From positions 18,861,912-18,925,911 of the forward strand of contig OZ023188.1 of NCBI GenBank assembly GCA_963995505.1: 64,000 bases of DNA, given 5' to 3'. Source of the DNA: Hypericum androsaemum (Eukaryota > Streptophyta > Magnoliopsida > Malpighiales > Hypericaceae). The notes beneath the pieces were generated by a model. That model was not told where the DNA came from, ran no database searches, and worked only from the letters and a program-made list of their open reading frames with translations. The position numbers were made by a program, and so were the translations under genes. Below are positions 5,254 through 61,292 of the stretch, piece after piece (the stretch's first letter is position 1; each line of letters opens with the position of its first letter).

Positions 5254-5550
5254 TCAAATTCCGCCAATCTGCTGCTTGCAGATATCCCAAATTTCCTGCC
5301 TCGTCGAGAACTTGGATATAATTTCAAAACAGTCTTTACTTATTGACAAGATTGACATGCAGCAAGCATCGTCCAAGAACAAGAGGCCATCGTGGTAATG
5401 ACTTTCCTCAATCTGAGGCCCACAGTTTCCTCTCTCAAATGCTCGGTTCCAGCAATCCGGCGCCGGTGGCAATTCATTCTGGGCCCATATCGTATTAATA
5501 TTATTGCATACAATAAATAAGATCAGAATTACCCACGAGAATTTCGACAT
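5254..5550 (-). CDS. ECA1/egg-cell-secreted-like prolamin-domain peptide
   Basis: This single-exon gene encodes a 98-aa small secreted Cys-rich protein. The start was chosen at the Met of MSKFSWVILILF (5550) because a classical signal peptide follows immediately; the frame is open upstream, but that part looks non-coding. After the signal peptide the pattern DCW, RGNCGPQIEE, DDACC, KDC and DIC gives the six cysteines of the plant prolamin-like (ECA1, PF05617) family. Members act outside the cell, several in egg or synergid cells during fertilisation. Upstream on the minus strand lies a TATA-like TTAAATATC, then a gccATGG that opens a 3-codon uORF. A paralogue lies at 10,001-10,318 and a decayed copy at 9,086-9,265. 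Family confidence is high; the reproductive role is inferred. Confidence 0.8.
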   Translation of the reverse strand: MSKFSWVILILFIVCNNINTIWAQNELPPAPDCWNRAFERGNCGPQIEESHYHDGLLFLDDACCMSILSISKDCFEIISKFSTRQEIWDICKQQIGGI

Positions 5551-6941
5551 GCTTAGGTTACTGGAATTGCTTCCACAGATCTCAAATTGGCGATTTCTAA
5601 TTAGCCATGGCGAGGAGATATTTAAGGTAATTAAAAGTAACGCTTCATGAATTAAATTGAAGTTGATTAATATGTTTATAATAACGGGATAACAGCCGAT
5701 GCCTTGAAAGAACATTAAATTCCTCCAATTAGACAATGAATTTGGCCGACCTAAAAATTTGATTTTTTGCATCTCTTGGTTGTAACGATGGAAAGTGATG
5801 AATATGACAGATTTATTTATCTCTAATAAAACTCCAAAATTCTTAGCTATTGAAGTTTGAATTACAGATTTCTGATCAATTTAAAGTAAATTATTTACCA
5901 TATTATTTAAGTACTTGTTATTTAACGTGAATACGAGTGGGGTAATTATTTAACTTTGTTTGAGTTTATAATATATATACCAAAAAATAATTCAGTTTGT
6001 GGTAGAATGTGGACGAGATTCTAAGTTTTTTTTTAAAATATCGGGTAAGAACTAGATTTGAAATTTGTTCTCTCTTTGGAGAAATGGATGGACATAGTTT
6101 ATGGTGTTATAATTAAGAAAGTGCGATATGAATTATATAGAGCAGTCCTTTGGATAATTTGACTTACATGGAATCAATCATTTTTTCAAGAAGAAAGTGC
6201 TACAGAGAATTTCTCATTTATATTATTGTATAATTAATTCACGAGTAATTTTGATGGACACACTCAATTCTGAACATTGACCAACAAAACTTAATTTTCT
6301 ACATAAAATCTTAAGAGCTTCGAGAGACAAATCAGCGTAGATTAGTCGTTAAATAAAATTAATCCATTATTTAAAAAAATTCAGATTTGAATTAGGTCAA
6401 AATCCAAGGTGGTGGTTAGAGATCTTTCGAGCCTTTACAAATCAACATAGATGAAGGAATGTAATCGATGAAATTGAACCAAGCAAAACCATGTTCTAGT
6501 TTTTTTTTTCCCTTCCTTTCGGGAGAGTAAAATCGTAAGGAAACTAGAACGGTTAGCTAAGTTAAGCCAACTTAAGACTCTAGCGTCTCAATCGTTCTCC
6601 TGTCATCAATAAATTGATCTTCTTCTCCTATTTATTGAATCTATATTTGAGCTAGAAAATATTCGTTATTGTCATTTTCACTTCCTTTACTCGGCCTAAG
6701 ATTGTAGGTTGAAGGCCAGCTCACCTTCTCCATGAAATAAAACTCGAGATTTCGACAGTAGGGCTTCATTTAATACAAGCACACCGAAAAACTCGATTAA
6801 TCCATATTCGTTTCGGTTATAAATTTTAAAAAGTGACAAAATTATGGTTCCAAATGGAGAATTCCTAGTTAAACCAGGACTAACTCTATCCAAGTTACTC
6901 TCGTTAGTACCAACTAAAACTACAACTCATTTCTCTGTTCC
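5551..6941. other. Intergenic region between ECA1-like and GDSL genes
   Basis: The region holds the ECA1 promoter (minus strand) and the GDSL promoter (plus strand). A segment at about 5,929-6,060 is duplicated at about 320-480. No additional gene is recognised; a 65-codon minus frame at 6696-6893 has no domain. Confidence 0.5.
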
Positions 6942-11840: not shown

Positions 11841-12395
11841 TAAACTCTCTCAAAATCTAGCAATTTAATACCACATAAAAATTTTAGATGCGCTATTTTT
11901 TAAAGGTGGGCAGTTTTTTTATAGCATTTAATTATTTTGCTATGAGTTTATAGAAAATTTGTACCTTATATTTTAAAGGATGTGATGAACTTACAATTTA
12001 TAATCATTTTGGCATAGCTTAATTTTTAGATGCACGATTAGTAGGTTGTCTATTCACCATAATTTTTCTGGTCCTCGGTATCGTACCGGATCAGAACTAA
12101 TTTTTTGTTTCGGTTCTGGTCTAAATACAGAGCTTAATCGAATTACTTCGGATATTTCTCTCCACTCTTTTGAGTTTTCGGTTCCTATAATTTGGATTGG
12201 TTCGATCCAATTCGGACCAATTACTCACGCCCTAATCACTACTACTATGCTAATTCATCATTTTACAGACATGAATTGAAATAATGACGTAGACCTTTCG
12301 CCAAATTTTAACATTTTTATTGTTCTCGGTGCTCGAACTTGCAAAATTCTAGTTAAAACTGTAACATTAAAAAAGTTGTGTCATATATTACGTAC
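11841..12395. other. Intergenic DNA, no second OMT exon
   Basis: This is where exon 2 of the minus-strand O-methyltransferase should lie. No HDW-type exon or similar is present. At 12,040-12,235 repeated ggttcgg/ccgaacc-like words suggest a decayed hAT MITE, but no target duplication was found. Confidence 0.45.
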
Positions 12396-13187
12396 CTTGA
12401 TAAGAATGGCATCTGCAGGAGGAACCGAGACGAGCATGTCACCGGCCACGTGAGTGGTTCCAGGATATTCTGGCGCAGCAGCTACAACAAAAGACAGGTC
12501 GAAATTGATCCCTTTAATACGAGGAATCTCCCTCACTATCTCACTTATCGTAACCCCATTCCCTCCTCCGACGTCGACCAATGAACCAACTCCATCGAGG
12601 CCATTTTTATGCAAATACCCAATCTTGAGAGCTTCCATTACAATCTTAGACATGCTGGCCAGGAATTGCTGAAACATGGTGCAATGTTCCGGGTTGGCCG
12701 ACATGTAGCTCCACGCATCCATCCCACACCGCTTCGTGAAGCCGGTACTCGACCCTCCATCCATGACACAACCGTCCATCTCCTGCCAAAGAGAGAGGCA
12801 GAACTCGCTACTGTGGTACATCGCCAACGGCGCGAGGCTCTTCTCCTCCGGGTCGGACCGAAACAGCTTCGAGGCCGCGGTGAGGGAGTAGAGGGTGCTA
12901 CTGCCGGAATCCGAAGGGGTTGCACCGAAGATGCCGCGGCGGACCAGTATCGTCATGACCCGGGACAGACGGTCGATGTCAAGTGAAGGGTGGTTTATGT
13001 CGTTGCTGATTTGTGACAAGGAAATGGGGCCGCCATGGGAGCTTATTATGTCCGGGATGCGGAGTTTGATGGCGCATCTGAGAGCCGTAGCGTCGACAAA
13101 TCCGAAAAGGCATTCCCATGCAGCAGCTTCCCCTCTTACCATGTCATCTTCTTCTTCTTCTTGCTGCGGCGTAGTAGCCATTGACAT
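12396..13187 (-). pseudogene. COMT-type O-methyltransferase, exon 1 only (paralogue A)
   Basis: An open exon of 264 codons begins MSMATTPQQEEEEDD and carries the plant methyltransferase dimerisation domain (about residues 15-120) and the start of the SAM-binding fold: VDVGGGNGV, EIPRIKGINFDL, HVAGDM and ADAILIK. It ends at a proper donor AAG|GTACGT (12,395). The second exon, holding the catalytic His (HDW motif) and the C-terminal Glu, is absent in the 1.0 kb downstream. The sequence shows no stop or frameshift, so loss of the 3' half looks recent. It could still be transcribed; a far-away exon 2 beyond the Copia remnant cannot be excluded. Substrate class is unknown. Confidence 0.75.
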
Positions 13188-13613
13188 ATGCCTTGGAGAT
13201 TGATAGATAGATGGTTAAGAGCTTGTTGGGTGGAGATTTGTGGTGGTGTTTCGGCCAACGAGTAGGATAGAGGTGGAAGGTTAGAGAATGGTCCAAGATA
13301 TATATTAGAATCCTAAGACAGCAATGTTTTCAAAATCTGGTTTGACTGCTTGGTGAGACATATCTGAATGACCCGTTTTGATCAGAACAGTAAAAAATTT
13401 TATTTTATCTGATTTAATTCAGAATTAATACCTCGACTTCTATACTAAGAGCGTGTACATTACATTTAGATCACAATAAATTTATATTTTTAACAATTTT
13501 TGATATTATGTCAACTAAGTCAAACAAAATTTTGATATTAACGCCTCCTTCCCTCTCTCGTCTATCTCTTCCTCGATGGCCACCAAAACTGAAGGGGAAA
13601 AGGAATTCCAATA
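13188..13613. promoter_or_regulatory. Spacer between the two divergent OMT fragments
   Basis: A 426-bp region lies between the start of paralogue A (minus) and the truncated exon of paralogue B (plus). A TATA-like atatata lies at about 13,301 for the minus gene. The part next to paralogue B shows no methyltransferase homology, marking its 5' truncation. Confidence 0.4.
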
Positions 13614-14160
13614 TGAGCGAGATCGTTAGAGAGATTCCTCGTATTAAAGGGATCAATTTCGACCTGTCTTTTGTAGTTGCTGCTGCACCTGAGTATCCTG
13701 GGATCACTCATGTTGCTGGTGACATGTTCGTCTCGGTTCCTCCCGCGGATGCCATTCTTATCAAGGTAATAAATATATCCAACTTTGTTCTATCTTAAAT
13801 TTCCATGTGCCCGTTTTACCATCACACGTGCTCATTCTGCAGTCACATGAACCGGTAATTCGTTATGACTTTGTAGTTGGTGCTGCACGATTGGGATGAA
13901 GAAAAGTGCATCAAAATCCTGACAAGGCAATACCTCAGGAGACAGGGAAGGTGATCATAGTTGACATGGTCCTAGACCCATATGGAAAAGACCCATTTGA
14001 CCACGCAAAAGTGGCGTTTGACTTGACAATGATGCTGCACCTGGGTGCCAAGGAAAGGACTCAAGACGAGTGGAGCGCGTTGCTACAAAGAGCGGGATTC
14101 TACCGCCACAATATTATCAAAATTCCGACTTTCGTTTCCGTCATTGAAGCATATCTTTGA
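13614..14160 (+). pseudogene. COMT-type O-methyltransferase, 3' part (paralogue B), frameshifted
   Basis: The last 51 codons of exon 1 (13,614-13,766, SEIVREIPRIKGINFDL to ADAILIK) are followed by an intron and exon 2 from about 13,877 (after ctttgtag). Exon 2 starts LVLHDWDEEKCIKILT with the catalytic-base HDW motif, then shifts frame near 13,922; the other frame continues AIPQETGKVIIVDMVLD to the normal C-terminus FVSVIEAYL and a stop at 14,160. The first ~210 codons of exon 1 are missing. It is 88% identical to paralogue A over the shared 153 bp (18 differences, 15 silent), so the two copies were long constrained before breaking. Confidence 0.8.
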
Positions 14161-18799: not shown

Positions 18800-19498
18800 G
18801 GCCTTGCCTTAACTCCGATAACTGAGTTCCGACATGTGTTGGTTGCGTACATGTCTTCATTTTTCTGTCAGTATGGCTTTTTTCTCTTTCTTTTTCGTAC
18901 ACAGGTCGTCGCTTTGTGGGAGGAGAAGATGTACAGTCAAACTCTACTAAATGACTATTAAGTTCTTAATAATGGTTTTAAAAAGAAGTTTGAACAAGTA
19001 TAATTTTATGTGGTTTCAGATACCTACCGTATCAATTATTTCAAATTTAGATATTATACAACTTTAAAAATTGAAGAAGTCAAATTTTAATGCAGTAACC
19101 TTATAAAATTTGAACAGGAAAATTACTTTGTAGTCTCTCGGGTTTGCTAAAATATACTCAAAAGTCCTTCATATTTGTAAAATACATGCTGATGTCCCTC
19201 TAATATATTTTTATTATACTTTCGGGTCCCGGCACATGTTCGCTGCTCTTTTTTTATTTTTATCAATGAAATGACCAAAATACTCTTATAACAAAAAATA
19301 AAAAACTATTGATATCATCTCTTTTTCTTCCTCTTAGCCAGTGACATCATCATTTCTTCATTCCACTTCAACGATTCAATAAAGCTTCCAACTAAACAAA
19401 CTTTTAATTAAACCTAGTTCTAACTAAATCCAAGACAAAAATAAAACTCAAGAAATAAAAAACCCACGACTTTGCTCAACCAAGATCGAGGAAAATGG

Positions 19499-19805
19499 CG
19501 TCGTTGTGGTGCTCGAAGTTCCCGCCCTTGTAGCAATCAAGGCAGAGATGGTAGGGAGCGGCTCCGAGCGTCGAGTGGCAGCCGTCGCACATCACCGTCC
19601 TCCTGGTCTCACAGAGGTAGAACATGGCGATAGACTCCTCGAAGTCGAGGGTCCCGTCTCCATCGGCGTCAAGCCCCCTCGGCGTCCCGCCTTGGATCTT
19701 ACCCCCTGGCCTGTCCTTGTCCTCTCCATGTGGCTCACAAACTCACGGGCGTTGATCCTCCCGTCGCCGTCGGTTAATAATTTTCTGTCCTCGTACTTTG
19801 AACCT
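19499..19805 (-). pseudogene. Captured EF-hand/zinc-finger gene fragment in the Pack-MULE
   Basis: On the minus strand two EF-hand loops are legible: TDGDGRINAREF (about 19,730-19,790, preceded by a ttttgcag splice acceptor at about 19,806) and DADGDGTLDFEES (about 19,640-19,680). A zinc-binding segment follows: MCDGCHS, then YHLCLDCYKGGNFEHHN, with paired CxxC motifs. The reading frame is interrupted between the two EF hands. This looks like exons of a plant calcium-binding EF-hand protein with a ZZ-like finger. It lacks the gene's ends and is carried antisense to the mannosidase piece. Confidence 0.65.
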
Positions 19806-19867
19806 GCAAAAGAGAATCCCCAAATCGTGAATCAAAACACGGCGGGATCTCGCCCTCGGGGACGACG

Positions 19868-20055
19868 ATGGCGACAAGGATCCCCAAATCGCGAATCAAG
19901 CTGGACGTTACCACGAAGTAGCTCTACGACGGGATCGAGTTCGGGAACAGACCCGGTGGCCCGTGGAAAGCAGGGGTGGAACGTCACCTACGGCAGAAAC
20001 GAGTGGGACTGGGAGCGGTTGAAGGTGTTCGTGATCCCACACATGGAAGAAGATG
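19868..20055 (+). pseudogene. Captured Golgi alpha-mannosidase II fragment in the Pack-MULE
   Basis: From ATG at 19,868 the frame reads IPKSRIKLDVTTK, a stop codon (TAG) where the family has an acidic residue, then LYDGIEFGNRPGGPWK. After one inserted A the next frame reads GWNVTYGRNEWDWERLKVF VIPH. This is the region just before the catalytic-domain start of plant Golgi alpha-mannosidase II (glycosyl hydrolase 38); the expected SHNDPGW that follows VIPH is absent. The piece is too short and too damaged to encode enzyme. Confidence 0.65.
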
Positions 20056-20444
20056 AAGCTTCACGCCTGAGTTTTAATCTTTGATTTTTTTTTGAATGAT
20101 GCATTCTTTGTTGAGCAATTTTTGTCCGGCTAGGAGGTAGAATGAGAGATGATGTCAGCATTTTTTCGTTTTAAGGATATTTTTGTCATTTTATTGACAA
20201 AAAAAAGAAAAAAATATATTGAGAGACCCGAAAGTATAATAAAAATAAACTAGAAAGATGTCGACATGTATTTTACAAACAAAAATTTTTTTTAAATATA
20301 TTTAAACAAACCCCAATTTGAATCCTAACTCAATAGACAAAGTCAGCATAGTCGTTAACCGCTTTTAATGGCAGAGGAGGTACGAGTTGAGTCACTTGAA
20401 CGGTAGCAGATATTTTTTTTTTCTGTGTTGGGATAGACAAGGTG

Positions 20445-20745
20445 GGTTTTTTTTCTGAATGGTGTTACTATTCACCATTTTTTGTGAAAAAAGCGTCCGA
20501 TTTGAAAGTATTGCGGGGATGGTGTCCACGTGGCACGGACGCCGAAAAAAGTCGGATCTTGGACCAAGATCCGACTTTTTTTGTCGGATGACCAAGATCC
20601 GACTTTTTTTGTCGGATCTTGGTCAAATCCGAAATCTGAATAGGAGATTTCGGATAACCAAGATCCGACTTTTTTTGTCGGTTCTTGGTCCATAACAAGA
20701 TCCGACTTTTTTTGTCGGTTCTTGGTCCATAACAAGATCCAACAA
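20445..20745 (+). repeat. Left TIR of the MULE with palindromic repeat units
   Basis: The outer part matches the right TIR. From 20,545 inward the motif AGATCCGACTTTTTTTGTCGG recurs in both orientations, giving perfect palindromes such as the one centred near 20,565. The left TIR has about 59 bp more of this unit than the right. These are candidate transposase-binding or hairpin-forming sites. Confidence 0.85.
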
Positions 20746-20825
20746 AAAAAGTCGGATTTTGGTCGGTATAAACACCAAAATCCGACTTTTTCCGTCGCTC
20801 ACACTCCCGTCCCCAACGTCGCCTT

Positions 20826-21310
20826 CCCGTCTGTCCCGCTCGCCTCGCCGCGGCTCCCCGCTCCCGCTCGCCTCGCCGCTCCCGCTCCCCGCCCCCGCTC
20901 CCCGGATCCCGCCCCCGCCCCCCGCTCCCCGCCCCCGCTCCCGCCCCCCGCTCCCCGCCCCCCGCTCCCCGCCCCCGCTCCCGCCCCCCGCTCCCCGCCC
21001 CCCGCTCCCCGCCCCCGCCCCCCGCTCCCCGCCCCCACTCCCCGGTCCCCGCCCCCGCCCCCCGCTCGCCGCCCCCGCTCGCCTCGCCGCTACCGCTCCC
21101 CGCCCCCGCTCCCCGCTCCCTGCCCCCGCTCCCGCCCCCCGCCCCCCGGTCCCCGCTCCCCGCCCCCCGGTCCCCGCCCCCGGTCCCCGGTCCCCGCCCC
21201 CGCTCCCCTGTCCCCGCCCCCGCTCCCCGGTCCCCGCCCCCCGCTCCCCGCCCCCGCTCCCGCTCGCCACTCGCCGCTCCCGCTCGCCGGCTCGCCCGCC
21301 TCTCGGTACA
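20826..21310. repeat. GC-rich minisatellite, (CCCCGCTCC)-like
   Basis: About 485 bp is almost purely C and G on the plus strand, built from degenerate cccgctccccgccc units. It lies between the left TIR and the plant mobile domain gene and has no counterpart at the right end. The open frames here (Pro/Arg/Ser-rich on plus, Gly/Arg/Ala-rich on minus) follow from base composition and are not called as genes. Confidence 0.8.
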
Positions 21311-21454
21311 GCCCCCGACGTCGTATTAGGTAAATTTTTTAATTAGTTAATTTTTTACCTAATACGACGTTAGTTAATTGTGAATATTAGTTAATTGTTG
21401 ATGTTAGTTAATTGGTTAATTGTTGATGTTGGTTAATTGTAATTTGTAGATAAT

Positions 21455-21665
21455 TGGTTAAAAAAATTTGGTCCGAATGGTGCGACCAAAATTTCGGTCT
21501 GACCGGTCTGGCCAAAAAATTGATCAGACCAAACTGACCAATTTATGGTCCGACCGGTTTGACCGAAAGATGGTCCGACCGGTTTGACGGAAAGATGGTC
21601 CGGCCGGCCAGTTTGACCAAAATAATGTCTGAGTGGTTTGACCGTTAAACAATGTGACCGTAATA
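21455..21665. repeat. Left subterminal GGTCCGACCGG repeats
   Basis: Short repeats ggtccgaccgg, ggtttgaccg and ggtctgaccgg occur at least six times in 200 bp, 140-350 bp upstream of the mobile-domain gene start. The same words recur at 29,655-29,885 upstream of the transposase gene, suggesting shared promoter or transposase-recognition arrays. Confidence 0.7.
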
Positions 21666-21807
21666 TGGTCTGTAATAACGCTATTTTAATTAATTTTTTG
21701 ATTAATGTTCTAATTGTTCAATGTTTAACATTGTTAGATTTGCTAAGTTTGTTAATATATTGGTAAGTTAATATAATGTTCTAATATGTCTATTGTGTTG
21801 TTTAGAT

Positions 21808-24657
21808 ATGGATGCACAGCCATACGGGCATCTTCTAGGGAATGGAGGACCCTTAGATACGTCGGTATTAGTGCACCAGGATGTGCACCGTTCTCAGGAC
21901 GTGTGGAACCGTGAGGTTCGTGAAGGGATTAACGATAATCAGGACACATTGTTGAAGATACACCGACGGAAATGGACGGTGTCTCATGTGCAGAACGAGG
22001 CCTTTATAGCCTACATGAAGGAGGCAGGTTTCTGGGATGTGTGGTGTATTGGCTGGGTCGTTCTCGAAACAGCATTTGTTACAGCCTTGGTGGAGCGGTG
22101 GCGGCCCGAGACCCATACGTTCCATATGCCTGTGGGTGAGATGACAGTTACTCTTCAGGACATTGCTGTGTTGTTCGGGCTTCCTATCGATGGTCACCCA
22201 GTAACAGGGTTGCAGACACCTCCTGATTGGCACGAGTTCTGCGTACGCCTATTTGGCAGTAACCCGGTAGATACCCCTGGAATGGTTTGGAAAAACCAAA
22301 TTGCCCTTAAATGGTTCGAGGACCATTTTGACCCTGCTACTATCCCGATTGATGCTGGTGATGATGTCGTAAAACGATATGTTCGAGCGAACATATTGCG
22401 ACTTATCGGATGCATTCTTTTTCCCGAGTCTAGTGATGCGAGGGTGAACACATACTGGTTGCCACTGCTAGAGAATGTAGAGGCAATTGGTTCTTACAGC
22501 TGGGGGAGTGCGTGTTTGTCACACACGTACAGCCACTTGTGTAGAGCCACAAGCTCGACACGTTCACTTATTGCCGGGGCGATGACGCTAGTATGTATGT
22601 GGGCTTGGGAACGGATCATCCCAAATCGTCCGGTTTTGTTAAATCCGGCAGTGCAACAACCTGGGCAAGCACTGGGCATCAGGTACACATTATTACTTAA
22701 TGCACTGTAGCCGCTGATTAACCTTATAGACTTGACGTGATATTTTTATGTCACTGTGCAGGTGGAGTGGAAAATTTAACAGAGCGGCCAGCAAAAAAAT
22801 AACAACCGTATCTGTTTACAGACGCAGGTTGGATGAGCTTAGAGAATCAGATGTAAGTAATTTGTTTATTAAATTTTAATGAATAGTTTTGACTTAAATC
22901 ATACTGTGTTGCATACATATAACCACGACCATTTGGACGAGCTACAACTGTGTGCATTTGTTACAGGTTGTATGGATGCCGTATAACGACGAGATTCTTG
23001 GCAATCTCCCGACAATATGCCATCGTGATTGTGGCTTATGGTTGGCACGAGTCCCGTTGATATGCTTTTTGCATGTGGAGTGGCATTATCCTGATCGGGT
23101 GTTACGACAGTTCGGATTACTCCAGGGTATTTCGGCTAGCCCTGAGATCGATGAGGCGACACATAGTGCGGTGGATGGTCGGGGTCAGGCTGGCCAAAAT
23201 TGGAATGCCATTTACGAAGGCCATGTGAAGATCTGGGTGGAATTTCGGACAAGATATGTGTATCACGGAGTACCTACGTCGCCGTATATCCATTATCATG
23301 ATGGATATATGGATTGGTACAGGAAGATTACTCGGCGATTCATCAGCCCTGCTAGCGCAATGTTACACATGAGTGTAAGTCAATTTAGCTATGTTAAATA
23401 AAGATGTTGTCTATTTTAATTTTAATAGCGATGTTCCACAATGCTAATGATAATAAAATTTTATTTGTAGGCGGATGTTGTTGAGCATATACGCCACAGG
23501 TCTTCAGACATTTCAGAAATTCAGAATTTGTCGCAGGTTGCACTTGGGTTCGCCGGCGAGCAAAGACGGTACCTAGGTCTCCGCGACAGCCAGCCACCTG
23601 TGGGACTGGCGGAGCACATGACATACGAGCTTCCTCAATCAGAGAGGGTATCTGTCGTGAGACGCAAAACCACCCTTTTCAACAAGCGGCAACCAATACC
23701 CCGGCCTGAGCCCGTACCTGGTTATCAAGTGGAGCCCATGGTCTGGGAAGATTATCGGTCGAGAACGCAGATTCTAGCAAACACAGTGACGTCTCTCAGC
23801 ATGGATACCTCCGCCTCTCATCCATTCTCCCAGCACACAGATTTTGGCACCCCCGGCTCCGCTTCCCAGCCGTCCCACCAGCACTCGAGTTACGGCCTAG
23901 GCCACACTGGGGTGCCGCATTCCCAGCTGTTTACTCCCCCTAGGCAGAGGTATTTGTTTATCTTAATTTGTGGTATTAATTATGAATTTTATTACAGTAT
24001 GTTCAATTGATTTGATTTCATTATTATATAAATTTTTGGGTTTGTTATTAGGGGTGTTCTCATTGGAGACGGTACAACGGCAGCTAGGTCTGTGCAGCCG
24101 TTTTCTTACGGATTGGGCCCTTCCGGATCGGGTTTCGGCGTCGCCCCCTCCGCGGCTCATCCATTATTCAGGGAAAATATATTTGGTTGGCCCCAAACTG
24201 GGGCTCATACGTCTGACACGCAGTCCAGTTTTGGTTTCACCCGGTCTGGTATACAGACATCCCAACTATTTGAGACACCTACACAGAGGTTGGTTCTCTA
24301 CAATTTGGTGTGTGTAAATTATGAATTTTATTTAAAATTTTTGAATTGATTGTATGGCTTTATTGTGTTGATAACATAATTTGTTGATTTTGATAAATTT
24401 GTATGATATTTTATAATAGGACTTCGCCACGTGATACTTCAACTCATGGTAGTGGTGACTCTTCATTTGACGATCCAACCGATTTTGAGGATGAAGAAAT
24501 ACCTCTGGTCCGGCGTCAGCCTAATCGGGGAGCTAGAGAGGCTGGTGTGCGATGTTTTACAGGAGGACACCTGAATGTGCCTGGAAAGGGAAAGGGGAAG
24601 GCGAATGCTCACGTAGATAAGCATCAAAAGGAGAAGCCTCAGAAGAAGAAGAAGTAG
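21808..24657 (+). CDS. Plant mobile domain (MAIN/MAIL-like, aminotransferase-like) protein in the MULE, six exons
   Basis: Exons 21808-22682, 22762-22852, 22967-23374, 23471-23949, 24052-24288 and 24420-24657 join without a stop (2,328 nt, 775 aa), all GT-AG. The start is the ATG of MDAQPYGHLLG. Residues about 50-470 show the plant mobile domain (PF10536): FIAYMKEAGFWDVW, ERWRPETHTFHMP, GEMTVTLQDIAVLFGLPIDG, then WMPYNDE and WHYPDRVLRQFG. The C-terminal third is low-complexity Ser/Gly/Thr/Pro, and the end is a Lys-rich patch (KEKPQKKKK) that could target the nucleus. Host proteins with this domain (MAIN, MAIL1) act in gene and transposon silencing, and transposon-borne versions are known. A role in countering or using host silencing is inference. 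The gene reads inward from the left TIR. Confidence 0.88.
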
Positions 24658-24954
24658 TTTATGCTTCTGTACTTGACATTTGTTGGATGCTTTTATGACT
24701 GTATTAACTTCACTTTTTTTATGATTTGTGTTTTAGTTCTCGAAACTTTTCAAACGTTATACCTTTCTAGATAAGTATGCCGTCAAGATATTAAACAAAG
24801 TACGGTATAAGAAAATACGACATGACAAAACTAAGAAGTGCAATACTAAAATAGGATGACAACAATCTGAAATAACATATAAAAAAATGTCTTTATGTTT
24901 CTCAACACGTTGTCACAATTCTCATCAGAATTCCCGGTAGGGACATATTTGCCA

Positions 24955-26689
24955 CTATTCCTTGAAAACTCGTTTAATATTCTCGTGATCAACACTGAAA
25001 TGTATTCGATTTTCTTCATACGAGACATAAATCTGTTCAAAAAAAACTTAATTAGGTCAATGATTATATTAAAATAATTTACTGACGACGATGTAATGAT
25101 AATATAAGCTTACATCTTTCACTAGCAACACACATCCATCACAGTAGGTACTCTCAATGTCTTGTAAACTCCCCGTGATTTCGCCAGTAGGATCCTTCAT
25201 AAATTTATAGATATGAAGTCTTTGATAATTTAAAAATATGATTAAGAAACAAATAATACATTATATTATAATACCTGAAAAACTGCTCGGAAACTATTGC
25301 CGTATACATGTTTCTTCTTTTTCACGTACAGAACCATCTGCAAGTCTCTTAGTTAACAATAACATAACTTGCAAATTGAAAAATTTTCATATATGTACAA
25401 ATGTTACCTGTGGAATTGTGATGCTTTCAGAGATTGTTTTTACATCCTCAATAGATACTCCATCAACGTTAGCTCCATACATCAAACCTAAAAAATGTAA
25501 CAAATTAGATACTCCATAAATGTAAGTAACAAGTATGTATAAGTATTTTCGTAATACCGTGAGATATAACAAATTCAATAGCTGTTGTCCATGGTTCATT
25601 GTTGAAAATGTCATTGGCTTTGCGGTCTGCTTCAGCTCGTATGGCTTTCCTTCGAAGGGCTGATTTAGCTTCAGCTTCCTTTTTATGCAGCTCTAACCTC
25701 TTTTGTTCTTGGAGCCACTCAAAGGCCTCTGAGCCATATAGTGCCTTCAAATCGGCACCACGTCCCTCAGGATATGGTGCTGGAGGATAAGGACGACGAC
25801 CATCATAGGATGGTGCTGGACGAGTTTGTTCTTGGGAATCTTCATCAGATTCTCCATTTTTCTTAAACACTTTGACAACGTTCTCATCAGTAATGCTAAA
25901 TAATTTGTTGTTCGGGTATGGGGACGAGTCAACTTTTACCTGTTGAAGAACCAGAAAATCAGTAAACAACTATCTGGAACTATTGAGAAAAAAAAGGATA
26001 TGCTCACATTTTTAAGATACAACACACATCCAGCTTCAACAAGACCGGTAGAGTCATTTATGGTACCAGTAATACTGCCTGTAGAATCCTGTAATATATT
26101 AAAAGTTTAAAAAATTTCTCACATAACATAAATATGTAAGAATAAATAAAATTCTTTTAATTGTACTTTGAATGTCGCAAGTGCGCCAATTCCGATACGC
26201 TTAAAACGGGTCACCTCTACAACCATCTACAAGCAAATACAAAATACTTGTTATAAAATTGACTATGATGCTAACTCAAATTAAAGGATAATGTAAAATT
26301 TCTTACCGACATAACTGTAGTACCACTATAGGTATTTTTGAAGCTCTGAATACTTGTCCCTTTAAAACAGGTTCCTATCATCATCCCTGTAAAATAAATA
26401 AAAATTTAATAAAAATATTATGTGATCCAATATAGAAATACGGAATACCTTCAACTGTCAGAAAGTCCATGGCTCTACTCCACGGTTCTGGATCTCGCTT
26501 GACAAGCTTGTAATAACAGTTGCTTTTGGTAGGTTTCTGAGGAGGGACTTCTGATCTATCGTTGGATGGCCTCTGTAATCGTTTGAAAATATACCCAAAC
26601 TTAGAACCACATAGAGCATTCCAATCGATTCGAGGATGCTCCGGCTCTTCGTCATCATGTGCGATTGGCTCTTTGCCACTTCTCCTCAT
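24955..26689 (-). CDS. Tandem OB-fold protein (HROB-like) in the MULE, nine exons
   Basis: Exons 26449-26689, 26307-26386, 26167-26226, 26008-26088, 25558-25939, 25408-25487, 25275-25337, 25114-25194 and 24955-25032 join in frame to 381 aa with consensus splice sites. Two modules repeat: a PWxxAMDF or PWTTAIEF helix, then 80-nt, 60/63-nt and 81-nt exons with identical phases. The 81-nt exons read DSTGSITGTIND...CVLYLKN and DPTGEITGSLQD...CVLLVKD, followed by a strand and an NVVKVF or NIKRVF end. This pattern matches the OB fold of homologous-recombination OB-fold protein (HROB/MCM8IP), a single-strand-DNA and MCM8-9 helicase partner. A helical KR-rich linker joins the modules. The ATG is 178 bp downstream of the transposase stop, directly after a splice acceptor (ttcag at 26,698), so a spliced leader exon or shared transcript is likely. 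Family call is inferred from motifs. Confidence 0.72.
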
Positions 26690-26867
26690 CGGCACACCTG
26701 AACAATTATGACAATAAACATATACATAAAATGTGTAATGCGTCATTATTCTACTAAGATAGAGTAACTTAAACTTCACACTGTTACAAAGAAACTCAAC
26801 ACAACCCACATAGAGTTTCACAAAATATTACAAAGTACAATCCTTTCAGTTCAAAATTAATTACAAT

Positions 26868-29558
26868 TCAACGTCCACGACGGCGTCTACTCGTACTTGC
26901 CCCTACGGATACAGCTGCCGCTTTAGCTGCTTTAGCCGCTCTTGCCGCCGCAACTGCTCTTATATTAGTACAATTGGCTTTTGTGTGACCCCTTGTTTTA
27001 CAGAGCGTACAGCGGACGAAAGGCACTGTATCCATTTCATTATGTATGCGCTTCCGTGGCTGTCCTCTACCCCTCGCTAATCTTTCATCTGGAATGAGCC
27101 TTACAACTGTTGGATCTTCAGGATACGGCCAATATTTAGGATTGCCCAGAGGAACAAACTTCAGTTGGTAGCAAGCTTGCGTGGTTTCCAGGCGATAATA
27201 CTTATCCACAAATATCTTGTAATCGATGCCAAGTTCAGTACAACACGCCATCACATGTGAGCACGGATAGTGGTAAGCCTAAAATTTGCCGCAGCCACAA
27301 AATCCTGTGGAAAGATTAACTGAATGCTTTCTGTCCCCCTTTTGTCTTCTCATATCGTACCCAGTGCGAACTTCGCACGATCCAACTGTACTGTCAGAAA
27401 CTCGCACTCTATGTCCATTGGCCTTTCCCTCCCACCGCTCCAACCTGTTTAGGAGCTTCTGTGACATCAATATTTTGCCAGTACAGCTCTCTTTCATACA
27501 CTTAGTTGATCTCTCTTCAAAATATTCGGTTAGCTTGTTAAATGTCTCTGCCACCAAGGCTGTCACCGGTAAACGACGAACTTTTTTGAAGATCATATTT
27601 ACGCACTCGGCAATATTCGTCGTCATGTTACCATAACGGCGTCCGCCATCCCACGCTAAGCTCCACTTGGGCAATTCCTGTTCATACATCCAGTTGAAGA
27701 CCTCCTGGTCGACATTCCATATTTCTCGCATGTTAGCTTCCAACTTCCACAGTTGAGCTTGCATTCCTACAACCAACATAGTAAAAATATTAAATGTGGA
27801 GTAACAACTTGTAAAATAGTTTTAGACAACAAAACATTTGTGCATGTCACCTGCAATCTTCATGACATTCCTCATGGCGTCGTTTTTGAAGTGTTTGTTA
27901 AGATTGCTTGCTACGTGTCGAAGACAATATCGATGGGCGGTAGCACTGTCTTCTCCCCAACCATACTCCGTATCCATTGCCTTTAATATGCCAGCATGTC
28001 GATCAGAAATAACACATATTCCATGTCGGCCAGGCGTGACGTGCTTCCGGACTTGTTTCATGAACCACGGCCAACTATCCGTGTTCTCACCCTCTACCAG
28101 AGCAAATGCTATTGGAATTATAGCATTATTACCATCAATTGCAGTGGCGATCAGGAGGACATGCTTGTATTTTCCATACAAGAACGTTCCATCAATCTCC
28201 AAGACAGGCATGCAATGTTTGAAAGCTTCAATGCAAGGCTTGAAGCTCCAAAAAACTCGCTTAAAGATCTTTGTTCCAGGCATCAGTGCTTCCACGTAAT
28301 GGTCGCAACCAGGGAGGGTGTGATAATATTCCCATTCAACAACAGTTCCAGGATTATTTGCCTTGCATGCTGCAAACCATTGCGGAAGGCGATTGTAAGA
28401 TTCTTGCCAATCCCCCCATAAATCTTGAAACGCCTTCTCTTTTGCCCACCAAGTCTTCGTATACGAGGGTCTAAACTTCATATGGTCGTGGATCTCTGAC
28501 CTTAAAGTGGCCACACGAATATCTGGTTGTTCCTCTACTCGTTTCTTAATAATTTGTGCAATGAAAGCAGAAGTGAGTTGTTTATGATCCTGCGACTTTC
28601 GTAGGCGACCACAGGTATGGGGGTAGGTGTGTTTCACGATTTTCCATGGACTGAAAAGTGTGCCCCTTCTTTCCTGTGAGACACGGATCTCCCATTTGCA
28701 ATCATCCGTCTCCCATTTTTTACACTTCACAGAAAAAGTTTCAGGCCTTGTTTCTTTTCGAACAAACTCACGCCCATCGTTCATTACGAACGCCTCGATC
28801 TCCCTCTTTGCATCAAATTTGCTCTTCCAAATCGTACCCTCTTTCAACAAACCAGAACAACTTCCATCTATTGCTCGGTCGCAATCCCATTCTTCACCAT
28901 AAACAGTCATCGATGATTGTTCACCGGGATCATTTAGAGCGAGTTCACCGTATTGTTGTTCCCGGTATTGTTGTTCCTCTTCTTCTACTACTTCTTCTTC
29001 ATCTTCGTCTTCTTCTGCTTCATTTTCGTCTTCTTCTGCTTCGTCTTCGTCTTCGTCTTCGTCTTCTTCTGTTTCGTCTTCACGATCAAAATTGTATGTG
29101 GCATATGGACCTGCCTCTCTAGGATCATTTTCAAACCAATCAAATATTGGTTCATGAGCAACATCCATCCTCGTTGACGTACCAGCTTCAACGACAAACG
29201 GGTTGTAATTATTAACCCTCTTTTCCACAATGATTGTAAGCTTAATCTCCTTCACCATTGGTCCAAAGAAGTTAATCATGGTCTCCAGCATTATCCTAAC
29301 ATCTTCATCGTCGTTAATAAACATTGGACCAAATTGTCCTCTTCCAAATGGACATCTAAATATCAATGGCCCAAATTCTTCATTTGGACCTATTGGGATC
29401 TTTTCGTTAACTTTTTTCCGCAAGATATTGTATTTAACAAATGCTGCATGAAACTTCAACTTTTCTTTCCCACCACCTTGGTAATCAAAACCGGTTTCAT
29501 TATTGTTGAAAATTACTCCATCGTATTTCAACTTTATTCTTATAACCCGGTTAGCCAT
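26868..29558 (-). pseudogene. MULE (mudrA-like) transposase, one in-frame stop
   Basis: Exon 1 (27851-29558) and exon 2 (26868-27766) give 869 codons with a single TAG at codon 732 (27279-27281). Order: N-terminal PB1-like region (about 1-110), a long Glu/Asp tract (about 160-195), a MuDR-type zinc-binding DNA-binding domain (FVRKETRPETFSVKCKKW to YPHTCG), then the DDE nuclease with Asp455 (VLEIDGTFL), Asp518 (CVISDRHAG) and Glu623 (NIAECVN). Next comes a SWIM finger (CGCGKF, stop, AYHYPCSH), a CCHC knuckle (CTLCKTRGHTKANC) and a basic tail (SRRRRGR). The stop falls between the CxC and CxH halves of SWIM, where relatives have Gln, consistent with one CAG to TAG change. Everything else is open, so inactivation is very recent, unless the stop is read through. 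Confidence 0.9.
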
Positions 29559-29654
29559 TATGAATACTACAACAAAAGAAAACAGTATGCAATTCTATAT
29601 TAGCAACACAAAACATAATTTATATTAACGAAAATATCATATAAACATACATTC

Positions 29655-29885
29655 TTCTCCATCAATTTTTTGGTCCGACCACCTTAAGAACCAGATGAAA
29701 TTTAATCGGACTGGCAGGGTGGTCACTTTTTTTACTCGACCATCCGGAATTTACCAAGAAAAAATTCACATCCGGTCAGATTGGTCAAACTAACCGACCG
29801 GTCCGACCGACCGGTCCGACCGGTCCGACCGACCGACCGGTCCGACCGGTCCGACCGACCCATTAAACCGGTCTGGCCATTGGGT
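29655..29885. repeat. Right subterminal GGTCCGACCGG repeats
   Basis: A dense run of accgaccggtccgaccgg words at 29,790-29,870, plus ggtccgacc at 29,670, lies 100-330 bp upstream of the transposase start. It mirrors the array at the left end of the element. Confidence 0.75.
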
Positions 29886-30144
29886 TTGGTACTAAAATCC
29901 GCACACCCACAAAATTTTAAACAATCAGATATCACACTCAAAAAATAGAAGGAATTAATAATTTCAAAGCTAAAATATACTAATTATTTTAAATTAATGA
30001 ACAAACTCTACATATATACCAAAATATTAAAGTAAATTAATTTACCTGGTTTTGGGCAGGCAGGGTCTTCTATGGTATGCAGTATGCAGGACGTCTTCGT
30101 AGGGATGACAAAAGGCTTCTGCGAGGTATCCATTATATAGGATA

Positions 30145-30379
30145 TATGATCGACCAAGATTTGTCAAAAAAAGTCGGATCTTGGACCAATGTGTTAAAGA
30201 ACCGACAAAAAAAGTCGGATCTTGGTTATCCGAAATCTCCTATTCAGATTTCGGATTTGACCAAGATCCGACTTTTTCCGGCGTCCGTGCCACGTGGACA
30301 CCATCCCCGCAATACTTTCAAATCGGACGTTTTTTTCACAAAAAATGGTGAATAGTAACACCATTCAGAAAAAAAAACC
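30145..30379 (-). repeat. Right TIR of the MULE
   Basis: Inverted copy of the left TIR, including the gtccacgtggcac block, the gatttcggat block and two AAAAAAAGTCGGATCTTGG units. It is shorter than the left arm by one palindromic repeat unit. Confidence 0.88.
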
Positions 30380-30458
30380 GACAAGGTTGGGTTAAATTGA
30401 GAAACGTGATGGCCTACATTAAATAGTATTTGCTTCCCAGCAAAGGACTAATTGCTCG

Positions 30459-30920: not shown

Positions 30921-31010
30921 ATTACTCGTACTTGGACCACCCGATCGAAATGGTCCAAGTACTCCTAATTACAAGTACTATTTTATTTGTAATATCTGTT
31001 ATTAATTTTT

Positions 31011-32127
31011 GAAAAAATTACTCTTAAGTCCTTCGGGTTTACTTAAATATACTCAAAAGTCTCTCCTGTTTGCAAAATACACGCCGACGTTTTTCGTGTT
31101 TGATTTTATTATACTTTCGGGCCCCTGGCGCACGTTAGCAGCTCTTTTTATTTTTGTAAATAAAATGACCAAAATACCTTTAAAAAAATCTGCTGACATC
31201 ATATACTCTTCTTCTTCCTCCAGCGAACTTCCGATCAAAAGAGCCACTAAACATTCAAGTCATTGCCACTGGCTACAACAATCACCATCTTCCTCCCTCT
31301 CGTCGCCGACGAGTCCTGCAAGGAACACACATACAAAACCCATCGCCACCGCCCACGGAAAGATTGCTCTCGATCCCAACGACGAGTCCCTAAATTCCTC
31401 ATCTCTGAAGCCCGGTGTCGACTTTCTTGGCGTCATCTTCCACCTCTCATCTCTGTGTAGTGGACCAATTGAACGTGGTTCGATGCCACGACATATATGA
31501 CCGCAAAGGCGAGATCCAGGTCCTTCTCGAATTCGTGGACCAATTGAACATGGTGCGATTAAGCTGTGGGCCAACTGAACGATGGGGCAGTGATGACGAC
31601 GCTGCGGTGATGACGATGCCGATGCCAGAAGCATGAGACCCTACTGGATTAGCGAAAGCTTCTGCCTGCAAGAAATTGAAAGGGAAGGGAAAGTAGAGAG
31701 AGAGATTGACAGACCCACCACTGAAAATCGGCCACGATTGAAGGACCCACCACCGGCGTTCACGAAGGTAGTACCTGGATCTAAGTGATGTCACGACCTG
31801 GATTTCAATTTGCGGAAAATTGAATTTGATTCTAAACGACTGCTTGAAAATTGAATTGGAATTTTTGTTTGTTTTTAATTAGGGGAAGAACCTTATGGAA
31901 TTGAGAAGGTGGTAAGAGAGGAAGAAGGGTTGGAAGAAGAGATGATCTAAGCTATTTTTGTTCTAAGTGTATTTTTGTCATTTCATTGACAAAAAGAGAA
32001 AAAATTTATTGAGGGATCGAAAAGTATAATAAAATCAAACACAAGGGACGTCAGCGTATATTTTGCAAACAGGGAGGACTTTTGAATATATTTAAGTAAA
32101 TACGAGGGATTTGAAAATAATTTTTCC
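31011..32127. mobile_element. Non-autonomous MULE with long TIRs
   Basis: Arms at about 31,011-31,190 and 31,950-32,127 are inverted copies (gggtttacttaaatatactc, tttgcaaaatacacgc, ttattatactttcggg). Flanking TTAATTTTT (31002-31010) and ATAATTTTT (32128-32136) match at 8 of 9. The arms belong to the same family as those of the Pack-MULE at 19.1 kb. The interior, about 31,190-31,940, is GC-richer with several broken short frames that I do not recognise; it may be another captured host fragment. Confidence 0.75.
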
Positions 32128-32136
32128 ATAATTTTT

Positions 32137-33034: not shown

Positions 33035-34348
33035 TTAATTAGGATTGGCAAATTTTTGCCAAATATGCTCAATCAAGTCGCTTTTGATAGCACTATGAGC
33101 TTCTCTATTACGAAGGTTTTCCCTGGCAGTCATATAGGATGATAGGCTTCCGATGCGTTCAGTAGAGAACTGAAAAAGTTCTTCTTGTTCTTCATTTAGG
33201 AATTCTGTTGGATCATAATAATGGAGATATGTATCTCGTTCATCCTCTACTATCATATTGTGCAATATGATACAAGCCATCATAATTTTCCCAATGAAAT
33301 CCTTGTCCCAAAGAAGACATGGACGTCGAATGAATGCAAAACGAGCTTGTAGAACTCCAAATGCTCGCTCCACATCCTTTCTAGCAGCCTCTTGATGTTG
33401 AGCGAACAACTTGTGCTTTAGGGTCGACGGAGATGTAATTGACTTGACAAATGCAGCCCATGCAGGATATATCCCATCAGTGAGATAATAAGCCATATCA
33501 TTTTGGCGACCATTGACGATGTAACTCACTTTCGGTGCTCGACCTTCCAAGACATCAGTAAAAACAGGAGATCGGTCCAGTACATTAATATCATTGCACG
33601 TACCTGGTGTTCCAAAGAAATCATGTCATATCCATAAGTCATAGGATGTAACTGCCTCCAAAATGATTGTTGCCTTCCCACTCCTTCCTGCATATTGTCC
33701 AGCCCATGCAGTTGGACAATTTTTCTATTCCCAGTGCATGCAGTCAATACTGTCTATCATACCCGAAAATCCATGTTGTTCCCCGACATAGAGTAGTCTT
33801 GCCAAGTCTTGTTGGTTGGGCTTTCTCAGATACTCGGGACCGAAGCAAGAGATGACACCGTTAACGAACTTCACGAGAGCTTTTCTTGTTGTAGATTCAC
33901 CCATTCTCACATATTCGTCAACGACATCAGCTGATGTCCCATAAGCTAACACTCTCATTTCTGCTGTACATTTCTATAATGCTGAAAGATTTTGTCTACC
34001 TGCAGCATCTCATCTTTGTTGAAAATATTCATCTGAAGCACTCACCGCCTCCACAATACGAAAAAATAGTGGTCTGCGCATGCGAAACCTACGTCGGAAG
34101 GTTTCAGGTGGATACGTTGGCCTCTCTACAAAATAGTCATTCATCAAGCGCTCCTCACCAACCTGGCGTTCCCTATTGACAAATCGCCTTGGTGGTGGAG
34201 TCGTTTGCTGATTGGCAACGAGCATATCCTTGAGTATGTGATCAATTTGTTGATTCTGGTCACAGACTCGTGCCTCCCATTCATCAAATTCAATGGTGAA
34301 TGAATCACTTGAACTTGAACCAGAACTTGATCTAGAATTGAGAGACAT
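33035..34348 (-). pseudogene. PIF/Harbinger (HARBI1-like) nuclease, four in-frame stops
   Basis: A single 438-codon frame from MSLNSRSSSG to WQKFANPN is broken only by four stops: TGA after YFQQR, TAG before KCTAEM, TAG after CMHWE and TGA after LWI. It shows the DDE_Tnp_4 nuclease core: MIDSIDCMHW, NDINVLDRSPVF, YYLTDGIYP and RKDVERAFGVLQARF, with N-terminal FRRRFRM and LVKFVNGVI helices. There is no frameshift. Relative to conserved residues in relatives, each stop is explained by one C-to-T or G-to-A change. The partner Myb-like gene lies upstream on the same strand. The protein would excise and insert DNA at TTA/TAA targets, but this copy is dead. Confidence 0.88.
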
Positions 34349-34397
34349 TTGAAAGGATATTTGTGTATGTTTAAGTTTGATATTAATCCAAATATAT

Positions 34398-34727
34398 AGC
34401 TTCGGGACAAGTAGCATGTGGGAGGGACTGACATTGGATACCAAAGTTGAAGCGACATAAAATAGCTACGGGACAAGTAGCATGTGGGGGGGACTGACAT
34501 TGGATACCAAAGTTGAAGCGACATAAAATAGCTACGGGACAAGTAGCATGTGGGGGGGACTGACATTGGATACCAAAGTTGAAGCGACATAAAATAGCTG
34601 CGGGACAAGTAGCATGTGTGGGGGACTGACATTGGATACCAAAGTTGAAGCGACATAAAATAGCTACGGGACAAGTAGCATGTGGGGGGGACTGACATTG
34701 GATACCAAAGTTGAAGCGACATAAAAT
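34398..34727 (-). repeat. 66-bp minisatellite, five units, upstream of the nuclease gene
   Basis: Exactly five 66-bp units (330 bp) begin agctacgggacaag and end gcgacataaaat, nearly identical. They lie 50 bp upstream of the Harbinger nuclease start, between the element's two genes. The unit length is a multiple of three, so an artefactual minus frame repeats a 22-residue block five times. Confidence 0.92.
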
Positions 34728-56404: not shown

Positions 56405-56879
56405 TGACGCAGCTAGGATCAGATTTAAGTCGAACTCGATTGAAGGATTGGATAGCTCCTTGTTTCGTACAACTTCTGTTGCGTGAAAACAAGTTGTTCT
56501 AAGATTAGAACGGCCAGCTTAGGGCGAATTTGAATAGAAAGACTCAACACGGACGCACCGCAATTTTGGACACTTTGTCTCAGTTTGGAAATAACTTGAC
56601 AATGCTTGATTATCTTTTCATAGCATTATAAAGCGGAGGCGGGTTACATGGCGTTTTCGAAGGGCGACCTATTCCCCTCCTTACACGATCGTTACACCTC
56701 TTTAACCCACACTTAATGGCACTTATTTCCTGCCTTATTCAGCTACCGGCTATAACGAAGAGTGCGGATCAATTACAATCATTAATGGAAATGACAATTA
56801 AAGAGCATCACAGCCAACTTATTCAGACGAGCCAAACGATCCCATGCAGCCAAGCACACGTTAAGACGTTCCTACGTCA
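56405..56879 (-). repeat. 3' LTR of the Gypsy element
   Basis: 475 bp, TGACG...CGTCA on the plus strand. The pol stop codon TAG (56872-56874) lies in its first 8 bases on the coding strand. Confidence 0.92.
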
Positions 56880-61286: not shown

Positions 61287-61292
61287 CGGCTT

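What the first reader, a model, noticed from the sequence alone, without database searches (positions are those of the whole stretch)
20445..30379. A 9.9-kb MULE carrying a mobile-domain gene, a double OB-fold gene and a transposase
Seen: TIRs differing by two substitutions and one T over the outer ~117 bp, a 9-bp target duplication (GACAAGGTG/GACAAGGTT), and three inward or internal genes in a MuDR-like layout. Known: MuDR has a transposase plus a second gene, and VANDAL MULEs carry anti-silencing genes. Inference: the mobile-domain and OB-fold proteins form an accessory module that counters host silencing or couples transposition to recombinational repair. I do not know of a described MULE with this pair.
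Basis: partly seen in the sequence, partly recalled or inferred. Interest (0 to 1): 0.92.

Follow-up and report, generated by a model that had tools for sequence, protein, structure and literature searches.

The report
Three-gene plant Mutator-like transposon
A 9.9-kb plant jumping gene of the Mutator kind carries, besides its own (apparently broken) transposase, a mobile-domain gene of a type already known from such elements and a duplicated relative of a DNA-repair OB-fold gene that I did not find described in one before.

Summary
Window 20444-30379 is a Mutator-like element (MULE) with long terminal inverted repeats (119 of 124 outer bases match ungapped) and a target duplication (8 bp perfect or 9 bp with one mismatch). 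It holds three intron-bearing genes: plant mobile domain (PF10536, E 5.8e-75), two HROB-type OB folds (PF15072, E 1.1e-16) and a MURA-type transposase (PF10551, E 3.8e-18). The OB gene is a tandem duplication of a five-exon unit: all four introns recur at the same place and phase. A PMD gene antisense to the transposase is already tabulated for most of the MUDR group (PMC6446971); PMD capture by MULEs and an anti-silencing role were proposed in 2017 (PMC5418596); the same three-ORF layout is published for barley Abermu (PMC9168764). I did not find an HROB-type gene in a MULE in print. New variant of a known kind. Function is inferred; copy number could not be tested, because the window's own genome did not complete (12 tries).

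The parts
20436..20443 (.). left target-site duplication GACAAGGT (9 bp with 20444 if one mismatch is allowed)
20444..20730 (+). left terminal inverted repeat, with tandem and palindromic copies of AAGATCCGAC / GTCGGATCTTGG
20856..21300 (.). GC-rich minisatellite (13- and 20-bp units; 83% GC in 20750-21249) between left end and PMD gene
21469..21607 (+). array of 25-bp unit TGGTCCGACCGGTTTGACCAAAAGA upstream of the PMD gene
   Evidence: 5.5 copies, 71% matches; GGTCCGACCGGT at 21547 and 21572
21808..24657 (+). plant mobile domain (PMD) gene, 6 exons (21808-22682, 22762-22852, 22967-23374, 23471-23949, 24052-24288, 24420-24657), 775 aa, open
   Evidence: model; PF10536 E 5.8e-75, residues 76-441
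24955..26689 (-). double HROB-type OB-fold gene, 9 exons (26689-26449, 26386-26307, 26226-26167, 26088-26008, 25939-25558, 25487-25408, 25337-25275, 25194-25114, 25032-24955), 381 aa, open
   Evidence: model; PF15072 E 1.1e-16, two stretches; intron phases 1,0,0,0 / 1,0,0,0
26868..29558 (-). MURA-type transposase gene, 2 exons (29558-27851, 27766-26868), 868 codons with one in-frame stop
   Evidence: PF10551 E 3.8e-18, PF00872 E 3.3e-06, PF04434 SWIM E 2.1e-04
27279..27281 (-). in-frame stop codon inside the SWIM zinc finger of the transposase
   Evidence: of 38 relatives aligned, 36 cover this stretch and all 36 read on through it
29793..29860 (.). array of CCGACCGGT units upstream of the transposase gene, sharing GGTCCGACCGGT (29813, 29839) with the array upstream of the PMD gene
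30149..30379 (-). right terminal inverted repeat
30380..30387 (.). right target-site duplication GACAAGGT

Best explanation
The element is a TIR MULE of the MuDR kind in a flowering plant (species unknown) with three genes: PMD gene inward from the left end, transposase inward from the right end, and an HROB-type OB-fold gene behind the transposase in the same direction. Shown: ends, duplication, gene models, domain families, the internal duplication of the OB gene, the interrupted transposase. Inferred: both cargo genes derive from intron-bearing genomic copies captured by a MULE ancestor (transduplication) and were kept because they help the element. The PMD protein most likely acts on the host's MAIN/MAIL1-PP7L silencing complex, as competitor or redirector, so that the element is transcribed. 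The duplicated OB-fold protein most likely assists handling of the excision gap, by binding ssDNA or the MCM8-9 helicase as animal HROB does. The repeated GTCGG/GATCC motifs in the ends are likely transposase-binding sites, and the shared GGTCCGACCGGT arrays upstream of both outer genes likely common control or recognition sites. This copy is probably immobile without a transposase supplied in trans. I put the structural statement at about 0.9, the PMD anti-silencing step at about 0.35 and the OB gap-repair step at about 0.2; the confidence below is for a MULE whose two cargo genes are element genes, not chance neighbours.
For: TIRs and duplication. Pfam families for all three genes. Spliced frames of 775 and 381 aa are open over 6 and 9 exons with GT..AG introns. 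The two OB units are 38% identical (42 of 110 aligned residues), far above 1000 shuffles (score 181; shuffles mean -16, maximum 19), with four of four introns at the same place and phase. PMD antisense in most of the MUDR group (PMC6446971). Of 119 transposase relatives, 6 have PF10536 in the same predicted protein (P0021, P0048, P0096, P0102, P0115, P0116). The nearest relatives by tree path are P0003 (unnamed), P0020, P0001 and P0048 (Vitis), 37-41% identical, and P0048 is one of the six. In Abermu, ORF2 (parallel) and ORFR (opposite) have Ka/Ks below 1 (PMC9168764). Motif AAGATCCGAC: 9 occurrences in the window, all 9 in the two ends, against 0.15 per simulated window; GGTCCGACCGGT: 4, all 4 in the two arrays, against 0 in 40 simulated windows (first-order Markov).
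Against: No second copy seen; copy number and conservation of the pair untested. No relative of the OB protein was found in the protein collection and none of the 119 transposase relatives bears PF15072, so the gene may be confined to this lineage or too diverged for the word search. The second OB unit alone scores just under Pfam's cut-off (29.5 against 30.8 bits). In the six PMD-bearing relatives the PMD follows the transposase in the same reading direction, unlike here. The tree does not resolve the window's transposase. No expression, methylation or binding data. The transposase is interrupted, so the element as assembled cannot show that its cargo helps transposition. Rice Abermu copies that lack ORFR are polymorphic, which the authors read as recent activity without it (PMC9168764).
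Confidence: 0.8

Rival explanations
1. Passenger cargo: the OB gene (and perhaps the PMD gene) are transduplicated host genes that ride along without helping the element.
For: Gene pieces captured by DNA transposons are usually non-functional (PMC13317346, passages). Only one copy examined; no relative of the OB protein found.
Against: Both cargo frames are open over 6 and 9 exons while the transposase is broken. PMD genes recur in several MULE groups (PMC6446971), which is less expected of passengers. The OB gene fills the slot of ORF2 in Abermu, whose Ka/Ks is below 1 (PMC9168764).
Confidence: 0.35
2. Recombination helper: the OB protein recruits host MCM8-9 or coats ssDNA so that the gap left by excision is refilled from the sister, turning cut-and-paste into net gain of copies.
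For: PF15072 match; animal HROB promotes MCM8-9 in homologous recombination and its OB fold contacts MCM9 (PMC11055865, passages); another paper says HROB binds ssDNA through its OB fold (PMC11377751, passages). Abermu reached about 10,000 copies in barley by means its authors call unclear (PMC9168764).
Against: No binding test; plants' MCM8-9 partner surface not compared; the function of Abermu ORF2 is given as not clear and is not known to be HROB. The two HROB papers disagree on whether the OB fold binds DNA.
Confidence: 0.2
3. Transposase-OB fusion: the OB gene is read by splicing from the transposase transcript, because an acceptor-like CAG stands 8 bases before its ATG in an open frame and only 178 bases separate the genes; the product would be a transposase with two OB folds at its end.
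For: Sequence between the genes; predicted proteins that join PMD to a transposase in six relatives, and PMD-transposase fusions in grasses and Amborella (PMC5418596, passages).
Against: Donor sites in the last transposase codons look weak by eye; no transcript data; the in-frame stop would cut the fusion.
Confidence: 0.1
4. Chance frame: two unrelated inverted repeats happen to bracket host genes.
For: Single copy examined.
Against: E 1e-62 end match, target duplication, MULE transposase inside, genes oriented as in known MULEs.
Confidence: 0.02

Closest known systems
Plant MULE groups with a PMD gene (groups 42 and 45-50 in the table of PMC6446971)
   Same: MULE with SWIM transposase, 9-bp duplications where given, and a PMD gene, in the MUDR group antisense for most; group 42 lists an unknown ORF plus antisense PMD
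   Different: No HROB-type gene is named in the passages seen; the 'unknown ORF' and 'DUF' are not identified there
Abermu type I (Hvu_Abermu, barley; PMC9168764)
   Same: 8.2 kb, TIRs 138-145 bp, 9-bp duplication, transposase and ORF2 in one direction, ORFR in the other
   Different: ORF2 and ORFR have no assigned function in the sections read; sequences not compared here (not held)
VANDAL / VANC (PMC5735166; PMC13317346)
   Same: MULE with accessory genes and tandem non-coding motifs; there the accessory protein reads them
   Different: No array of the VANC21 motif here; the element has long TIRs; Pfam finds other cargo families; VANC itself was not compared
KI-MULE (Kaonashi, captured Ulp1; PMC13317346, PMC2528002, passages)
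   Same: MULE with a transposase and a captured host domain in an extra gene
   Different: captured domain is Ulp1, not HROB
HROB / MCM8IP / C17orf53
   Same: OB-fold family PF15072
   Different: here two tandem OB units in 381 aa inside a transposon; for human HROB one OB fold at residues 492-575 is described (PMC11055865)
RPA in plant Helitrons (PMC6431247, passage)
   Same: a DNA transposon with an ssDNA-binding protein of OB type (that RPA has OB folds is recalled)
   Different: other transposon order, other OB family

Membership tests
MULE (Mutator superfamily) | MURA-type DDE transposase | tested here: met
   PF10551 E 3.8e-18, PF00872 E 3.3e-06; 119 relatives, the named ones flowering plants and two Closterium proteins, about 17 unnamed
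MULE (Mutator superfamily) | terminal inverted repeats (usual in TIR-MULEs) | tested here: met
MULE (Mutator superfamily) | 8-11 bp target duplication | tested here: met
   8 bp perfect, or 9 bp with one mismatch
MULE (Mutator superfamily) | autonomous: intact transposase | tested here: not met
   in-frame stop at 27279-27281 in the SWIM finger; an assembly error is not excluded. A broken copy is still a MULE
MULE (Mutator superfamily) | dispersed copies in the genome | not tested
   The genome search 'own' not answered in 12 calls; no second copy in the window
PMD-bearing MULE of the MUDR group | PF10536 gene antisense to the transposase | tested here: met
PMD-bearing MULE of the MUDR group | transposase in the MUDR group | tested here: inconclusive
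   38 of 119 relatives in the tree, no reference MuDR among them; the window row's place is unresolved
PMD-C (clade of MAIN/MAIL1 and MULE PMDs) | phylogenetic place among PMDs | not tested
   no host or Gypsy PMD sequences fetched; only six transposase-linked PMDs compared, 31-39% identity, three of them over 114-252 residues
Abermu | three ORFs, ORF2 parallel and ORFR opposite to the transposase (type I) | tested here: met
   layout only (PMC9168764)
Abermu | sequence similarity to Hvu_Abermu | not testable with these tools
   sequence not held
VANDAL | array of VANC21 motif YAGTATTAY | tested here: not met
   two matches in 64 kb, at 8260 and 26069 (the latter in the OB gene), no array; motifs of other VANC proteins not searched
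Pack-MULE | no transposase gene | tested here: not met
HROB OB-fold family | PF15072 domain | tested here: met
   whole protein 61 bits, cut-off 30.8; unit 1 alone 34.8, unit 2 alone 29.5, just below
HROB OB-fold family | binds MCM8-9 / acts in homologous recombination | not testable with these tools
   needs experiment

The most novel reading that the evidence does not exclude
A PMD gene and a duplicated HROB-type OB gene form a standing accessory module of a MULE lineage: the PMD protein disables the MAIN/MAIL1-PP7L silencing branch while the double OB protein steers MCM8-9-dependent repair of the excision gap, so that one transposon both escapes silencing and multiplies by host recombination.
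Probability: 0.12. Interest if true: 0.85.

Novelty: new variant of a known kind. Interest (0 to 1): 0.5.

Why it matters
Extra ORFs of MULEs other than VANC are, in the papers seen, mostly without assigned function, and the barley family with the same layout reached about 10,000 copies by means its authors call unclear (PMC9168764). If the second ORF of such elements is an HROB-type recombination protein, the question how cut-and-paste MULEs gain copies becomes testable: the gene names a pathway (MCM8-9 recombination). The PMD half adds a test case for the 2017 proposal that TE-borne PMDs counter silencing.

Tried and rejected
Rejected: that the feature is a chance frame (E 1e-62 ends, duplication, MULE gene inside). 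Rejected: that it is a Pack-MULE (a transposase gene is present). Rejected: VANDAL by the VANC21 motif. Rejected as evidence: AlphaFold model of P0115 with 13 rows, mean pLDDT 38, so no fold search was made. Led nowhere: PDB by sequence for the OB protein (0 matches) and for the PMD (6 weak matches, best E 0.2); NCBIfam for the OB units (0 families); viral contigs with the whole OB protein, the first transposase exon (569 aa) and the first PMD exon (291 aa) (no relative); protein collection for the OB protein, whole (2224 candidates, none at E <= 0.001) and residues 270-381 (29 candidates, none at E <= 1). Absence there is weak evidence, since the search needs shared exact 5-residue words. The PMD protein was not searched in that collection (cap spent). 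The first splice model of the OB gene was out of frame; three exon ends were corrected. A splice that would skip the transposase stop was looked for by eye and not found plausible. The tree is a quick one, with the letter make-up of the window row flagged as odd; I draw only 'near, unresolved' from it.
Full report
What is there. The window is plant DNA, judged from its domains (PMD, which a review calls angiosperm-only: PMC8616336, passage; plant transposon protein PF04827); the species is not known. Between 20444 and 30379 lies an element with long inverted ends: 124 outer bases pair at 96% (119 of 124 identical ungapped), a further block of 76 pairs perfectly, and the gapped alignment shows 3 differences over 181 aligned positions in the two outer blocks, with one extra 60-nt repeat on the left and smaller gaps further in. 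It is flanked by GACAAGGT on both sides, perfect at 8 bp, or 9 bp with one mismatch when the element is taken to start one base later.

Genes. The PMD gene (+, 21808-24657) has six exons and codes for 775 aa; PF10536 covers residues 76-441 (E 5.8e-75). The OB gene (-, 26689-24955) has nine exons and codes for 381 aa; PF15072, the HROB family, matches twice (E 1.1e-16). The transposase (-, 29558-26868) has two exons; PF10551 E 3.8e-18, SWIM finger E 2.1e-04. These are models made by eye from frames and splice signals; all 14 introns are GT..AG, one OB acceptor (AAG) looks weak. Taken alone, the first OB unit passes Pfam's cut-off (34.8 against 30.8 bits) and the second falls just short (29.5).

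The transposase frame holds a stop at 27279-27281, within the SWIM match (residues 719-743); the product would end after 731 aa, behind the DDE domain (452-552) but without a whole SWIM finger and without the zinc-knuckle-like stretch near the C-terminus (the latter seen by eye; Pfam's hit there is below cut-off). Of 38 relatives aligned (of 119 found), 36 cover the place and all 36 read on. Either this copy is defective, or the assembly has an error there. The two cargo genes are open.

The OB gene is an internal duplication. Its halves share 42 of 110 aligned residues, far beyond 1000 shuffles. The four introns of each half lie at the same places with phases 1,0,0,0. So a five-exon genomic unit was duplicated with its introns; the gene did not pass through RNA at that point. 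Whether the duplication happened in a host gene or in the element is unknown.

Ends and control sequences. AAGATCCGAC occurs 9 times in the window, all 9 in the two ends (0.15 per simulated window, at most 2 in 40). GGTCCGACCGGT occurs 4 times, two in an array before the PMD gene and two in an array before the transposase gene (none in 40 simulated windows). The simulations were first-order Markov and do not model tandem repeats, so they show enrichment, not function. Long MULE TIRs hold transposase-binding sites and promoters (PMC3310237, abstract in the listing), and VANC proteins read tandem motifs in non-coding parts of their elements (PMC5735166, passages). That these arrays play such a part is inference. 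The VANC21 motif shows no array here.

Relatives. Six of 119 bear PF10536 in the same predicted protein; none bears PF15072. The element's PMD is 31-39% identical to those six, over 114 to 453 residues. The nearest transposases by tree path are P0003 (unnamed), P0020, P0001 and P0048 (Vitis), 37-41% identical; P0048 has the PMD attached. The tree used 38 of 119, held no reference MuDR, and does not resolve the window's row. In all six the PMD follows the transposase in the same direction; they may be gene-prediction fusions. The OB protein found no relative, and no solved structure matches it by sequence. Viral contigs gave nothing.

What is known. Ikeda et al. 2017 (PMC5418596, passages) state that the PMD was first described with a rice MULE, that PMD-C genes were captured twice by MULEs, and that an anti-silencing use is tempting to suppose. 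Dupeyron et al. 2019 (PMC6446971, abstract and passages) list PMD in seven plant groups (42, 45-50), 'in antisense for most' in the MUDR group, and 'unknown ORF and PMD (antisens)' in MULE-Solanaceae_1. Gao et al. 2022 (PMC9168764, outline and sections 13, 15, 16, 21, 23) describe Abermu type I with transposase and ORF2 in one direction and ORFR in the other, 8.2 kb, functions of the extra ORFs unknown, Ka/Ks below 1 for all three. Reviews seen in passages (PMC8616336; PMC13317346) mention PMD as a possible counter-silencing protein of TEs (the former) and VANC and Ulp1 capture (the latter). A HROB-type gene in a MULE did not turn up: searches (2 papers, both listed, on Oxytricha; 5 papers, all listed) were complete; one search listed 15 of 16; one search listed 20 of 234; one search listed 15 of 29,575, ordered by number of terms, and none of these 15 holds the HROB phrase. 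The library lacks most subscription papers, and Repbase was not searched, so this is not proof of absence.

How it may work. Shown: a MULE that carries these genes. Inferred, with falling certainty: the genes were captured from intron-bearing DNA; the PMD protein blunts the MAIN/MAIL1-PP7L silencing branch (about 0.35); the OB protein helps repair of the excision gap through MCM8-9 or ssDNA (about 0.2). [quoted passage not shown] Either would fit. The plain alternative, passenger cargo, stands at about 0.35.

Limits. The window's own genome, which would show the number and content of copies, was never reached (12 unanswered calls, listed in Tried and rejected). No plant DNA outside the window was fetched. 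Host PMD or HROB genes were not compared. The structure prediction failed (mean pLDDT 38).

Verdict. The element is real and correctly drawn; two of its three striking features (PMD antisense, three-gene layout) are known for this kind of transposon; the HROB-type double OB gene is the part I did not find described. New variant of a known kind, interest 0.5.

Noticed in passing
window 56428-61744: Ty3/Gypsy-type retrotransposon with 452-bp repeats 98.9% identical at its ends and gag, protease, RT, RNase H and integrase-type domains; not studied further.
   Followed up: partly
window 19119-20316 and 31004-32134: Two related MITE-like stretches, each with about 200-bp inverted arms (71-76% alike among the four arms), stand on either side of the MULE, about 128 bp to its left and 625 bp to its right.
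   Followed up: partly
window 33035-33625 (-): PIF/Harbinger-type nuclease fragment (PF04827 E 6.4e-65, PF13359; the Harbinger label is recalled).
   Followed up: no
window 34396-34727: Tandem repeat of a 66-bp unit, 97-98% alike, read as a repeated peptide on the minus strand.
   Followed up: no
window 12369-13789: O-methyltransferase gene piece (PF00891, PF08100) at an inverted repeat, 12369-12548 against 13613-13789, 86% alike: perhaps two facing copies.
   Followed up: no
window 20856-21300: Minisatellite of very high GC (83% in 20750-21249) just inside the left end of the MULE.
   Followed up: partly
window 62353-62898: Stretch 77% alike to its own reverse complement over 565 aligned positions: a large hairpin.
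   Followed up: no
window 5254-5880 (-): Prolamin-like domain, PF05617 E 1.8e-06.
   Followed up: no
window 26689-26867: Acceptor-like CAG 8 bases before the OB gene's ATG, in an open frame: possible splicing from the transposase transcript (sequence).
   Followed up: partly
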